Under the pieces are notes generated by a model. It searched no databases. It was given only the letters and a program-made list of their open reading frames with translations, and was not told the DNA's origin. A stretch of DNA of 13,461 nt. It comes from Actinomycetota bacterium. GTDB lineage: Bacteria; Actinomycetota; Humimicrobiia; Humimicrobiales; Humimicrobiaceae. Below are positions 1,217 to 13,416 of the stretch, in pieces (the first letter of the stretch is position 1; each line of letters begins with the position of its first letter). Where the stretch lies: NCBI GenBank assembly GCA_015711775.1, contig JACVJB010000004.1:1-13461 (forward strand), given 5' to 3'. The translations under genes were made by a program, and so were the position numbers.

Positions 1217-1848
1217 GGCTTATACTGCTTGGCGCGCCTGGAGCCGGTAAAGGGACTCAGGCTAAAAATATTACATCTAAGTATGATATTGCCCATATCT
1301 CGACAGGGGATATTTTAAGGGATGAGGTTAAAAACAATACTGAGCTTGGAATAAAAGCAAACCAGTATATGAAAGAAGGGAAGCTTGTTCCTGACGAACT
1401 AGTAATTGAAATGATAAGGAGAATACTTGTAAAAGATGGCTCCGGTACAGGATTTTTAATGGACGGTTTTCCCAGGACGCTGGTACAGGCTAAAAAATTT
1501 GATGAAATGCTTGCAAATCTGGGACAGACAATAGATAAAGTGATAAATATTTCTGTTGAGCCCGCCAGGCTAATAAAAAGGCTTACTTCCCGCAGAGTTT
1601 GCAGCAGCTGCAATAATATATGCAGCATTGAGGGCAATGAAGACAGTACAATGCAATGCCCTTTATGCGGCGGCCAGCTATATAAAAGAAAGGATGACAA
1701 CGAGGAAGTTATAGAGCAAAGGTTAAAAGTATATGAGCAGCAGACAAAACCGCTTATAGATTATTACAGCAAAAAGGGGCTTCTTTTTGAAGTTGACGGC
1801 ACAGATACTGAAGCGGAGGTAAAAGAAAGGATATTTTCAATTCTATGA
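1213..1848 (+). CDS. adk: Adenylate kinase, long form with zinc-binding LID
   Basis: Adenylate kinase catalyses ATP + AMP = 2 ADP in the cytoplasm. The 211-residue protein has the P-loop GAPGAGKGT at residues 7-15, the AMP-binding HISTGD near 28-33, the DGFPRT motif at 84-89, and a long LID domain. The LID carries four cysteines, C130, C133, C149 and C152, spaced CxxC...CxxC as in structural-zinc adenylate kinases of Bacillota and others. C137 is an additional cysteine in the LID. The start ATG at 1213 overlaps the secY stop (ATGA) and follows GAAGGG at 1199-1204. The gene's own stop overlaps the map start in the same way, so secY, adk and map are probably translated as a coupled unit. Confidence 0.97.
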   Translation: MRLILLGAPGAGKGTQAKNITSKYDIAHISTGDILRDEVKNNTELGIKANQYMKEGKLVPDELVIEMIRRILVKDGSGTGFLMDGFPRTLVQAKKFDEMLANLGQTIDKVINISVEPARLIKRLTSRRVCSSCNNICSIEGNEDSTMQCPLCGGQLYKRKDDNEEVIEQRLKVYEQQTKPLIDYYSKKGLLFEVDGTDTEAEVKERIFSIL

Positions 1849-2609
1849 TTATATGCAAGTCGGCAGATGAGATAAAGCTGATGAGGCAGGCAGGTAAAAT
1901 AGTTACTGAAGTTCTTTTACAAATTAAAAATAATTTAAAACCGGGGGTGCAGACTTCTTATCTTGATAAACTGGCTGAAGGAATAATATATAAGATGGGC
2001 GCGTTGCCCGCTTTTAAGGGTTATGTCGGTAAATTAAATTCCACTCCATACCCGGCAAACATATGTGTTTCAATTAATGAAGAAGTTGTCCATGGAATTC
2101 CGGGGAAAAAAACAGTTAAAGAGGGAGACCTTGTATCTGTTGATGTGGGAGTAAAATACCTGGGCTATTACGGAGATGCTGCAAGAAGTTTTATAGTTGG
2201 CGATGCAGGTAAAACCACACATAGATTATTTGATGCCACCCTTGATGCGCTTAATATGAGCATAGATAAATGTGTAATTGGAAATCGTCTCTCTGATATA
2301 TCCCATACTATTGAGGCAAGAGCGCAGAAGGATAATTTTTCAGTTGTTCGCGTATTTGTCGGTCATGGCATTGGAAAGAGGATGCATGAGGATCCTCAGA
2401 TTTTAAATTACGGTCCCCCCGGACAGGGCCCTCCTTTAAAAAAAGGAATGGTTCTTGCAATTGAGCCGATGTTTAATGCGGGAACTTCAGATGTTGAAGT
2501 GCAGCCGGATAACTGGACAGTTGTTACTGCCGACAGGAAGTTATCCTGCCATTTTGAGGACACTGTGGCAATAACTTCTGATGGACCTTTAATTTTAACT
2601 AGGGACTGA
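1845..2609 (+). CDS. map: Type I methionine aminopeptidase
   Basis: This enzyme removes the initiator methionine from nascent proteins with small second residues and acts at the ribosome. The protein has 254 residues, a normal size for the compact type Ia form without an N-terminal zinc-finger extension. All five metal ligands of the pita-bread fold are visible: D100 and D111 (in SVDVG and GDAARSF), H174 (GHGIGK), E207 (AIEPMF) and E238 (FEDTVAIT). The substrate-contacting histidines H83 (VVHGIPG) and H181 (MHEDPQI) are also present. The ATG at 1845 overlaps the adk stop (ATGA), with AAAGGA about 13 nt upstream. The 92-nt spacer after the gene contains a weak hairpin with a T tract and a good promoter, so this may be the end of one transcription unit. 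Confidence 0.97.
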   Translation: MIICKSADEIKLMRQAGKIVTEVLLQIKNNLKPGVQTSYLDKLAEGIIYKMGALPAFKGYVGKLNSTPYPANICVSINEEVVHGIPGKKTVKEGDLVSVDVGVKYLGYYGDAARSFIVGDAGKTTHRLFDATLDALNMSIDKCVIGNRLSDISHTIEARAQKDNFSVVRVFVGHGIGKRMHEDPQILNYGPPGQGPPLKKGMVLAIEPMFNAGTSDVEVQPDNWTVVTADRKLSCHFEDTVAITSDGPLILTRD

Positions 2610-2612
2610 TTT

Positions 2613-2632
2613 AAAAGTATGGACTTTTTTTT
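2613..2632 (+). terminator. Weak hairpin with T tract after map
   Basis: Just after the map stop, AAAAGT (2613-2618) pairs with ACTTTT (2623-2628) across the loop ATGG, and a run of eight T residues covers 2625-2632. The shape is that of an intrinsic terminator, but the 6-bp stem has a single G-C pair. It would at most attenuate transcription. Its position directly ahead of a candidate promoter supports a partial break between map and infA. Confidence 0.25.
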
Positions 2633-2638
2633 GATTAT

Positions 2639-2668
2639 TTGATAACCTACATGTTTGCGCCTTAAAAT
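2639..2668 (+). promoter_or_regulatory. Candidate sigma-70 promoter for the infA-rplQ block
   Basis: TTGATA at 2639-2644 (5 of 6 to the -35 consensus) is separated by 18 nt from TAAAAT at 2663-2668 (5 of 6 to the -10 consensus). Initiation would fall near 2675, giving a leader of roughly 27 nt that includes the infA Shine-Dalgarno at 2691-2696. The placement in the only sizeable gap between map and infA supports it. Activity is inferred from sequence alone. Confidence 0.45.
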
Positions 2669-2689
2669 AGGGTGTATTTATAATTTTAC

Positions 2690-2696
2690 AAGGAGG
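2690..2696 (+). promoter_or_regulatory. Perfect Shine-Dalgarno that fixes the ATT start of infA
   Basis: AAGGAGG at 2690-2696 lies 5 nt before the ATT at 2702. The in-frame codons between the upstream stop TAA (2681-2683) and ATT are TTT, TAC, AAG, GAG, GCT and GTC, none of which is a usual start. The site therefore points to ATT as the initiation codon. Confidence 0.85.
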
Positions 2697-2701
2697 CTGT
2701 C

Positions 2702-2923
2702 ATTTCTAAGAAAGAAGGCATTATTGAGGCTGAGGGCACAATTCTTGAAGCTCTGCCTAATGCCATGTTCAGGGTCGAGCTTGACAATGGACATAAGGTA
2801 CTGGCGCATATCTCAGGCAAAATGAGGATGCACTATATAAAAATACTGCCGGGAGATAAGGTAAGAGTGGAAATTTCACCTTATGACCTTACAAGAGGGC
2901 GTATAACATTCAGGAAAAAATAA
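2702..2923 (+). CDS. infA: Translation initiation factor IF-1, ATT start codon
   Basis: IF-1 is a small OB-fold (S1-like) protein that binds the A site of the 30S subunit and works with IF-2 and IF-3 during initiation. The 73-residue product matches the family over its whole length: [55 protein letters not shown] and [11 protein letters not shown]. The reading begins at ATT (2702-2704), 5 nt after a perfect AAGGAGG. No ATG, GTG, TTG or in-frame CTG lies between the upstream in-frame stop at 2681 and the conserved N-terminus. The next ATG (2765) would delete the first beta strand. ATT is the known start of infC in enterobacteria, where it supports feedback control; here it is on infA. A sequencing error changing ATG to ATT remains possible. 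Confidence 0.93.
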
Positions 2924-3042: not shown

Positions 3043-3156
3043 ATGAAAGTAAAACCATCAGTTAAAAAAATTTGCAGCAGTTGCAGGATAATAAGACGGG
3101 AAGGCAAAGTAATTATTATTTGTAAAAATCCCCGGCATAAACAAAGACAGGGTTAA
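3043..3156 (+). CDS. rpmJ: 50S ribosomal protein L36, zinc-binding (C+) form
   Basis: L36 is a 37-residue protein of the large subunit that contacts 23S rRNA. The sequence begins [17 protein letters not shown] and keeps the four zinc ligands C11, C14, C27 and H32 (CxxC then C and H in [11 protein letters not shown]), the ancestral C+ type. The length equals the family norm. The ATG at 3043 is preceded by AAAGGA (3031-3036) at a 6-nt spacing. The stop (3154-3156) lies inside the Shine-Dalgarno of rpsM (AAGGAGG, 3155-3161), so termination and rpsM initiation are closely linked. The infA-rpmJ-rpsM order is the classic one. The gene is short but unambiguous. Confidence 0.96.
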
Positions 3157-12784: not shown

Positions 12785-13024
12785 ATGCCAATGAGTTTGA
12801 GGCTCTCAAAAAGACTGATATGCGCAATAGAAAAAGCAGCAATGAAGGAGAATAAAACTAAAACAGCTTTTGTAATTGAAGCAATAGATGAAAAGCTCGG
12901 ACTGATCAAAAACAGGGAAAGTGCATTGCGTGACTTTGCCGGATGGCTTTCTACAAAAGAAGCAGATGAGCTACGGCTTGCAACATCTGTTTTTGAAACC
13001 ATTAATGAAGGTGACTGGGAATGA
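12785..13024 (+). CDS. vapB: VapB-type ribbon-helix-helix antitoxin
   Basis: The 79-residue protein looks like a CopG/RHH-family antitoxin. An N-terminal beta strand and two helices (MSLRLSKRLICAIEKAAMKE, then TKTAFVIEAIDEKLGL) would dimerise and bind operator DNA. The C-terminal part (AGWLSTKEADELRLATSVFE, INEGDWE) resembles the segment by which such antitoxins wrap around and block a PIN toxin. It should neutralise the downstream VapC and repress the shared promoter. The ATG at 12785 follows a perfect AGGAGG (12771-12776) with an 8-nt spacing. The stop overlaps the vapC start (ATGA), the usual coupling that keeps antitoxin ahead of toxin. The family assignment rests on pattern and neighbour; the subtype is uncertain. 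Confidence 0.85.
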   Translation: MPMSLRLSKRLICAIEKAAMKENKTKTAFVIEAIDEKLGLIKNRESALRDFAGWLSTKEADELRLATSVFETINEGDWE

Positions 13025-13416
13025 GGCTAATTCTGGATACGAATATATATTCTGACTATGCGGAAGGAAAGCCTGAGGTAGTTGATGTAATAGCCCGCAA
13101 AGCACAGGAGATTTGTTTCCCCTCAATTGTTTTGGGTGAACTATACTATGGGTTTTTAAAAAGTTCGCGAAAACAATTAAATGAACAGAAGATTGAGCAA
13201 TTTATTACTTTATTTAATGTGGACATAATAGTAGTAGACGAGGATGTCTCCCGTAAATATGCATTAATTTATGAGAACCTGGAGAAAAAAGGGTGCAGAA
13301 TACCTCTTAATGATGTATGGATTGCCGCCTGCTGCATGGCTGACGGTGGAACGCTTTTAACCAGAGATAATCATTTTAATAATGTTGAGCAAATCGAAAA
13401 AATTATATTACATTAA
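13021..13416 (+). CDS. vapC: VapC-type PIN-domain ribonuclease toxin
   Basis: This 131-residue PIN-domain protein is a probable Mg-dependent endoribonuclease. VapC toxins in other bacteria cleave initiator tRNA, other tRNAs or the sarcin-ricin loop of 23S rRNA; the target here cannot be told. The four acidic residues of the active site are in place: D6 in LILDTN, E40 in LGELYYG, D98 in PLNDVWIAA and D116 in LLTRDNHF. The toxin therefore looks intact rather than decayed. The ATG overlaps the vapB stop by four bases. The module has its own promoter and lies after acpS, where actinobacterial genomes usually continue with other housekeeping genes, so it was probably inserted. Confidence 0.93.
   Translation: MRLILDTNIYSDYAEGKPEVVDVIARKAQEICFPSIVLGELYYGFLKSSRKQLNEQKIEQFITLFNVDIIVVDEDVSRKYALIYENLEKKGCRIPLNDVWIAACCMADGGTLLTRDNHFNNVEQIEKIILH

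What the first reader, a model, noticed from the sequence alone, without database searches (positions are those of the whole stretch)
2690..2923. infA appears to start with ATT
The IF-1 reading frame has no ATG, GTG, TTG or CTG between the in-frame stop TAA at 2681-2683 and its conserved N-terminus. ATT at 2702 sits 5 nt after a perfect AAGGAGG. AUU is a rare start codon, best known on E. coli infC, where it lets IF-3 repress its own synthesis by rejecting non-canonical starts. IF-1 supports the fidelity function of IF-3, so an AUU start on infA could form a similar feedback loop that keeps IF-1 level matched to ribosomes. The position of ATT is seen in the sequence; the control is inference.
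Basis: partly seen in the sequence, partly recalled or inferred. Interest (0 to 1): 0.7.

Follow-up and report, generated by a model that had tools for sequence, protein, structure and literature searches.

The report
Class-wide AUU start on infA
In a group of uncultured actinobacteria the gene for the essential translation factor IF1 begins with the rare start codon AUU (or AUA/AUC) instead of AUG, as the gene for its partner IF3 does, which suggests that the cell sets the level of both proofreading factors through their own proofreading.

Summary
ATT at 2702-2704 follows AAGGAGG (2690-2696) by 5 nt, with no ATG/GTG/TTG/CTG between the in-frame TAA (2681-2683) and ATT. In the class, 37 of 40 genomes searched have a readable infA 5' end: ATT 31, ATA 4, ATC 2, never G in third position, although fourfold sites are saturated. 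Codons 2-21 evolve as coding sequence; the codons upstream do not. In 37 class loci, 280 of 280 starts of eleven neighbouring genes have a canonical codon available. The class is most probably Candidatus Humimicrobiia. There infC is also non-canonical (31 of 35 loci have no canonical option), and infB in two genera. Outside the class, 31 of 36 sampled phylum genomes use AUG/GUG/UUG; CUG/GUA occur in Acidimicrobiia-like ones. Most likely IF1 has been placed under the IF3/IF1 start-codon stringency that autoregulates infC; the feedback itself is inferred. AUN starts on a few other genes (nadE, rsmD, hypE) show that the device is not confined to initiation factors. My paper searches showed no AUU-started infA.

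The parts
2620..2648 (+). conserved promoter-like block (TGGACT - 17 nt - TAACCT), possible start of the infA transcript
   Evidence: upstream alignment; a loose form of its right half, TTG[AGC]TA[AT][ACT][CT]T[AG], is found upstream in 28 of 32 f1 genomes and 0 of 5 other class genomes; the promoter assignment is my inference. The scan instead scored TTGATA/TAAAAT at 2639-2668 (1 site found, 2.3 expected in shuffles)
2681..2683 (+). in-frame stop TAA that closes the frame upstream
   Evidence: sequence
2690..2696 (+). Shine-Dalgarno AAGGAGG, 5 nt before the start codon
   Evidence: sequence; SD duplex -11.2 kcal/mol here, -8.1 to -16.2 across 37 genomes
2702..2704 (+). ATT (AUU) start codon
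   Evidence: ATT 31, ATA 4, ATC 2 of 37
2702..2923 (+). infA, translation initiation factor IF-1, 73 aa
   Evidence: PF01176; translation
2765..2767 (+). first in-frame canonical codon (ATG, codon 22); false start of the 52-aa database entries
1845..2609 (+). map (methionine aminopeptidase), upstream neighbour, ATG start
   Evidence: canonical with SD in 33 of 33 loci; gene name by sequence familiarity
3043..3156 (+). rpmJ (L36), downstream neighbour, ATG start
   Evidence: canonical in 35 of 35 loci, 31 with SD; gene name by sequence familiarity

Best explanation
infA of this class is translated from an SD-driven AUU (AUA/AUC in some genomes) decoded by ordinary initiator tRNA. This start codon is kept by selection because it puts IF1 synthesis under the start-codon discrimination exerted by IF3 with IF1's help. 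When IF3 (and IF1) are plentiful relative to 30S subunits, AUU complexes are rejected and IF1 output falls; when they run short, AUU is tolerated and IF1 is replenished. infC in the same genomes carries the same kind of start, so both fidelity factors would be tuned together to ribosome number. Shown here: the AUN start and its conservation, the SD, and the parallel state of infC. Established elsewhere by others: IF3 rejection of AUU and IF1's support of it. Inferred: that this occurs in Humimicrobiia and is strong enough to regulate.
For: 37 of 37 readable class genomes AUN, third base never G, positions 1-2 invariant, while fourfold-degenerate identity between genera is 0.34. Codons 2-21 differ by 0.145/0.091/0.533 at positions 1/2/3 (a coding pattern), the three codons upstream by 0.349/0.546/0.644. 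SD present in all 37 (-8.1 kcal/mol or better). Neighbouring genes: 280 of 280 have a canonical codon, 264 with SD. infC: 31 of 35 loci have no canonical option. infB: AUU in 5 of 24 loci, genera g4 and g15 only. Initiator anticodon arm: 30 of 34 motif hits are CAU; the 4 others are not tRNA genes by ARAGORN. A second, Acidimicrobiia-like set has infA with CUG or GUA, also outside AUG/GUG/UUG. Literature, passages only: PMC4611024; PMC5472188 (IF3 represses the sigR GTC start, infC is ATC in Streptomyces); PMC13009471 (conserved AUA/AUU starts with strong SD lower output in S. aureus).
Against: No expression data were found for these uncultured bacteria. AUN starts also occur on nadE (no canonical option in 19 of 30 loci), rsmD and hypE, so the codon need not mean autogenous control. 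infB is canonical in 19 of 24 loci, including the genome of the window, so it is not a uniform initiation-factor rule. In the window's own genus the infC start is less clear: the AUC lies 12 nt after GGAGG. Some class members have weaker infA SDs (about -8 kcal/mol).
Confidence: 0.6

Rival explanations
1. Static damper: infA sits among ribosomal protein genes but less IF1 than ribosomal protein is needed; the poor start codon simply lowers its translation by a fixed factor, and any IF3 effect is incidental.
For: Position between map and rpmJ in a ribosomal protein cluster. pcnB in E. coli is a precedent of an AUU start said to reduce expression (passage and reference title). UUG or GUG is used by 21 of 36 sampled genomes elsewhere in the phylum, as if a weak start were often preferred.
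Against: A fixed reduction could be had with UUG, GUG or a weak SD, yet the class keeps good SDs together with codons that IF3 rejects, and shares this with infC.
Confidence: 0.27
2. Relaxed initiation: the class tolerates AUN starts in general, so AUU on infA is neutral drift.
For: A handful of other genes look AUN-started in G009/G008.
Against: 0 of 37 readable class infA genes have gone to ATG although fourfold sites are saturated. 280 of 280 neighbour starts keep a canonical codon. nadE and infB do vary between canonical and AUN, which is what drift would look like.
Confidence: 0.08
3. Annotation illusion: translation starts at Met22 (52-aa product) or at an upstream codon.
For: Many of the 120 listed database relatives are 52 aa, starting at that Met.
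Against: Codons 2-21 are conserved as protein, and the Pfam domain starts at residue 8. Upstream the frame is closed within 30 nt in 31 of 37 genomes. Met22 has no SD (-1.2 kcal/mol).
Confidence: 0.02
4. Sequencing or assembly error in one metagenome-assembled genome.
For: The genome is 68% complete, in 294 contigs.
Against: The same state in 36 other assemblies.
Confidence: 0.01

Closest known systems
infC autoregulation by its AUU start (E. coli; ATC in Streptomyces; passages)
   Same: Initiation-factor gene with a start codon other than AUG/GUG/UUG and an SD; the product takes part in start-codon discrimination
   Different: Here the gene is infA; its product supports rather than performs codon discrimination; control not measured
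sigR of Streptomyces (GTC start repressed by IF3; PMC5472188, passages)
   Same: An actinobacterial gene whose unusual start subjects it to IF3
   Different: sigR is a sigma factor, not part of the initiation machinery; GTC, not ATT
cvfC1 (AUU), ccpN and infC (AUA) in S. aureus (PMC13009471, passages)
   Same: AUN starts led by a strong SD, the first two described as conserved
   Different: Other genes; Firmicutes; output measured there, not here
Borrelia burgdorferi pncA (AUU; PMC13398362, passages)
   Same: AUU start with a truncated protein in databases
   Different: Metabolic enzyme; no link to initiation factors reported in the passages seen
Chloroplast infA with UUG start (Hirose 1999, cited in PMC9845219, passages)
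   Same: infA with a non-AUG start; change to AUG raised translation strongly
   Different: UUG is canonical for bacterial IF3; organelle
pcnB (E. coli, AUU; passage and reference title)
   Same: AUU start
   Different: Described as limiting expression; not an initiation factor

Membership tests
IF-1 (infA) protein family | eIF-1a/IF-1 domain over the Pfam cut-off | tested here: met
   PF01176, 100.6 bits against 30.2, residues 8-71, full profile 1-64; single match in the genome held
IF3-discriminated (non-canonical) start genes | start codon other than AUG, GUG, UUG | tested here: met
IF3-discriminated (non-canonical) start genes | SD that directs the ribosome to that codon | tested here: met
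   AAGGAGG, 5 nt spacing; all 37 have an SD duplex of -8.1 kcal/mol or better
infC-type autoregulated initiation-factor genes | expression rises when IF3 is short and falls when IF3 is in excess | not testable with these tools
   needs reporters or in vitro translation
infC-type autoregulated initiation-factor genes | changing AUU to AUG abolishes the control | not testable with these tools
   reported for E. coli infC by others (title in reference lists)
infC-type autoregulated initiation-factor genes | the product takes part in rejecting the codon | not tested
   literature only: IF1-induced 30S changes support IF3 fidelity (PMC4611024, passages)
altered initiator tRNA (reassigned start) | initiator tRNA with an anticodon matching AUU | tested here: not met
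   GGGCTNATAACCC: 34 hits in 25 of 40 genomes, 30 with CAU. ARAGORN was run at three CAU hits (tRNA-Met CAT at L168 and L169, no tRNA at L167) and at the 4 non-CAU hits (no tRNA). The genome of the window and 14 others had no hit, so an odd initiator tRNA outside this pattern is not excluded

The most novel reading that the evidence does not exclude
In Candidatus Humimicrobiia start-codon stringency itself is the sensor of an initiation-factor regulon: infA and infC class-wide, and infB in at least two genera, are all started with codons that IF3/IF1 reject, so the free level of the fidelity factors sets the synthesis of the whole set. A parallel version with CUG/GUA-started infA arose in Acidimicrobiia.
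Probability: 0.4. Interest if true: 0.78.

Novelty: new variant of a known kind. Interest (0 to 1): 0.62.

Why it matters
The AUU start of infC is a classic case of a protein repressing its own gene through its own biochemical activity. A class-wide AUU on infA would extend that principle to a second fidelity factor and gives a ready comparison (ATT, ATA, ATC, and CUG/GUA elsewhere) for testing how IF1 contributes to start-codon choice in vivo. It also matters for annotation: many database IF-1 entries close to this one are shorter by 21 residues, starting at Met22, as expected if gene callers pass over ATT.

Tried and rejected
Sequence error, start at Met22, upstream start and altered initiator tRNA were tested and rejected or disfavoured. 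A narrow DNA pattern for the start region hit 3 of 296 phylum genomes, all in f1, and missed most known members; it says nothing about distribution. (order) repeated (family), because the order holds the same 35 genomes. A first pairwise scan for conserved non-canonical starts (second part) flagged 169 of 297 pairs because alignments ran into non-coding flanks; discarded and replaced (20 of 289 pairs flagged). By eye, infB, nadE, hypE and rsmD are credible non-canonical starts and truB a conserved frame break; I set aside the other 15 rows, which look like antisense ORFs, alignments starting downstream of a canonical codon, or unclear cases. The coding-onset scan flagged 88 of 1212 ORFs; most look spurious, and only those with domain evidence or conservation are used. 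The 400-kb scan used an SD threshold that missed infA itself. prfB (L225) lacks a usable start; I take it to be the known RF2 frameshift (recalled). Rfam found nothing in the window at gathering scores. Paper searches showed no report of AUU-started infA in bacteria: I judged by listings, except for the papers opened. The term 'infa' matches word beginnings, so counts there are inflated. An arXiv study of genes preferring non-AUG starts is cited in PMC9845219 but is not held, so prior mention there cannot be excluded.

Full report
What is there. The + strand reads TAA (2681-2683) TTT TAC AAG GAG GCT GTC ATT TCT AAG AAA GAA GGC. The in-frame TAA lies seven codons before ATT, and no ATG, GTG, TTG or CTG stands between them. 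AAGGAGG (2690-2696) stands 5 nt before ATT. The 73-codon frame is IF-1 (PF01176, 100.6 bits, residues 8-71), the only such match in the genome held, which has 1.44 Mb in 294 contigs and is 68% complete. The next in-frame canonical codon is ATG 2765, codon 22, inside the domain, with an SD duplex of only -1.2 kcal/mol.

Relatives. The protein was sought in 40 genomes of the class: 35 of the same family, which are also all those held of the order, and 5 of two other families. 39 of 40 matched. G020 and G023 are cut at a contig end and G028 had no match, leaving 37 with a readable 5' end, from 15 genera. I read these and tabulated them: ATT 31, ATA 4, ATC 2, no canonical codon. The four ATA genomes (family f3) have ATT or ATC directly before the ATA, and a few others have a second AUN codon beside the first, so the exact first codon there is uncertain by one; either choice is AUN. 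Five of the 37 have canonical or CTG codons 21-126 nt upstream (G005, G024, G025, G030, G037). Those within ten codons of the start (G024, G025, G030) had no SD match; the farther ones were not tested. SD duplex energies run from -8.1 to -16.2 kcal/mol.

Why this is selection and not drift. Between genera, fourfold-degenerate sites of infA codons 2-31 are identical in only 34% of cases on average (618 genome pairs), that is, near saturation, yet positions 1 and 2 of the start codon never differ and position 3 is never G. Codons 2-21 differ by 0.145, 0.091 and 0.533 at positions 1, 2, 3, the pattern of translated sequence; the three codons before ATT differ by 0.349, 0.546 and 0.644. Translation therefore most likely begins at this codon. 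As a control I looked at eleven neighbouring genes in 37 class loci (not exactly the same set: G030 is there twice, the named locus L034 is included, the window itself is not). 280 of 280 starts have a canonical codon within ten codons upstream or six downstream of the aligned start, 264 with an SD. infA has none in 33 of 37, and in the other 4 only one without an SD. That stretch of codons is generous and will hold a canonical codon by chance fairly often, so single genes prove little; the contrast as a whole is clear.

Who they are. Two database proteins nearly identical to this one are named Candidatus Humimicrobiaceae, and the contig length listed for one (19,729) equals that of G018's infA contig. 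NCBI taxonomy places this family in class Candidatus Humimicrobiia, Actinomycetota. The assignment of the window is an inference from these links. The databases hold both 52-aa entries starting at Met22 and 73-aa entries starting Met-Ser-Lys-Lys. One 73-aa entry has a contig length (33,778) equal to that of L034, whose start is ATT, so at least some pipelines already seem to read this ATT as the start.

Other initiation factors. infC was found in 29 of 35 family genomes and in 5 of 5 other class genomes. Of 35 infC loci read (one genome has two; L132 is cut close to the start), 31 have no canonical codon between the upstream stop and the conserved N-terminus. Three have only an ATG 18-19 codons up, in a hairpin-like stretch; one (L294) has two ATGs 20-28 codons up and two GTGs inside or beside its SD. 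By eye, the likely infC starts are AUU, AUA or AUC in 28 loci; in six loci of genus g6 and one of G022 the SD-spaced codon is UUU or UUC, which I cannot explain. In the window's genus and in G003 the infC AUC/AUU lies 12 nt after GGAGG, farther than usual, so that start is less certain. infB was read in 24 loci (24 of 40 genomes matched): 19 canonical (17 AUG, 2 GUG), 5 with only AUU, all in genera g4 and g15, where the SD is not clear-cut. The genome of the window has AUG on infB.

How special is infA. In about 1.19 Mb of G009, a coding-onset scan flagged 88 of 1212 ORFs, mostly noise. Among 289 orthologous pairs of G009 and G008 (samples of both genomes), 20 rows were flagged; the credible non-canonical starts are infB, nadE, rsmD and hypE. 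ruvB, a PHP protein and a LytR-family protein look similar in G009 alone. nadE was read in 30 loci (of 34 matching genomes): 19 have no canonical option, 10 have one nearby (AUG in the genome of the window), 1 only farther up. So AUN starts are rare but not confined to initiation factors, and infA and infC stand out by constancy.

Beyond the class. 240 of 246 phylum genomes had an infA match, but only the better matches were listed, and from those I fetched 36 genomes of 34 families outside the class. The start, read by eye at the aligned position and not checked for an SD in each, is UUG 14, AUG 10, GUG 7, CUG 2, GUA 1, unresolved 2. The CUG and GUA cases, plus four named loci of which three are titled Acidimicrobiales, Acidimicrobiaceae or Ilumatobacteraceae, were checked: five of these seven have no canonical codon in frame, and two (L189, L105) have an ATG farther up. 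Among the 80 named loci, only L034 shows AUN at the start position, by eye. These are the 80 best matches, with many Streptomyces and other actinobacteria, so AUN-started infA in other phyla is not excluded.

Mechanism. A review states that AUG, GUG and UUG escape IF3 discrimination while other triplets do not, that IF3 and IF1 kinetically oppose locking with non-canonical ligands, and that IF1-induced changes of the 30S support IF3 (PMC4611024, passages). In Streptomyces, IF3 represses a GTC start, and infC starts with ATC (PMC5472188, passages). In S. aureus, AUA/AUU starts with strong SDs lower output, in one case depending on the medium (PMC13009471, passages). An AUU start with truncated database entries is known for Borrelia pncA (PMC13398362, passages). 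The initiator tRNA looks ordinary where found. The simplest mechanism is therefore that IF1 synthesis is gated by IF3 with IF1's help, in parallel with infC. That the gate acts as feedback in these organisms is inference; a fixed reduction of IF1 synthesis is the main rival.

Limits. Gene names of neighbours are by sequence familiarity unless a Pfam match is cited. A preprint on IF1 and IF2 (PMC13345285, passages), a codon survey with IF3 (PMC10158994, passages) and a paper on IF fusions (PMC9410913, passages) were also looked at; none of the passages tests an AUU-started infA.

Noticed in passing
L236 9497-11605 and L271-L274: infB of genera g4 and g15 has no canonical start; AUU is the likely start, so all three initiation factors are probably AUU-started there.
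   Followed up: partly
L214 15729-17492; L319-L348: nadE (NAD synthase) seems to start with AUN in much of the family (no canonical option in 19 of 30 loci).
   Followed up: partly
L117, L125, L128, L131, L132, L135, L136: infC of genus g6 and one copy in G022 appears to start with UUU or UUC at SD spacing, odder than AUU; unexplained.
   Followed up: no
L051, L061, L077, L105, L182, L189, L195: infA of Acidimicrobiia-like genomes appears to start with CUG, once GUA, with an SD.
   Followed up: partly
L236 about 13040 and L301 about 8937: truB is split over two frames at a conserved run of nine T in two species; looks like slippage or frameshifting.
   Followed up: no
L117, L119, L128, L137-L139, L141-L143: A terminator-like hairpin (GGTAGA...TCTGCC + T run, by eye) lies just before the infC SD in many genomes; possible attenuator; no Rfam match there in the loci searched.
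   Followed up: no
window 2620-2648: Conserved promoter-like block before infA; its right half is found in 28 of 32 family genomes.
   Followed up: partly
L235 1403-1951; L238 1114-2169; L238 14555-15580; L222 10718-11680: rsmD, hypE, ruvB and a PHP protein also lack a canonical start ahead of their conserved N-terminus in G009.
   Followed up: partly
L295 153-389 (- strand): T-box leader, 122.8 bits.
   Followed up: no
window 12785-13416: Two overlapping ORFs that look like a VapBC-type antitoxin and PIN-domain toxin pair (by eye).
   Followed up: no
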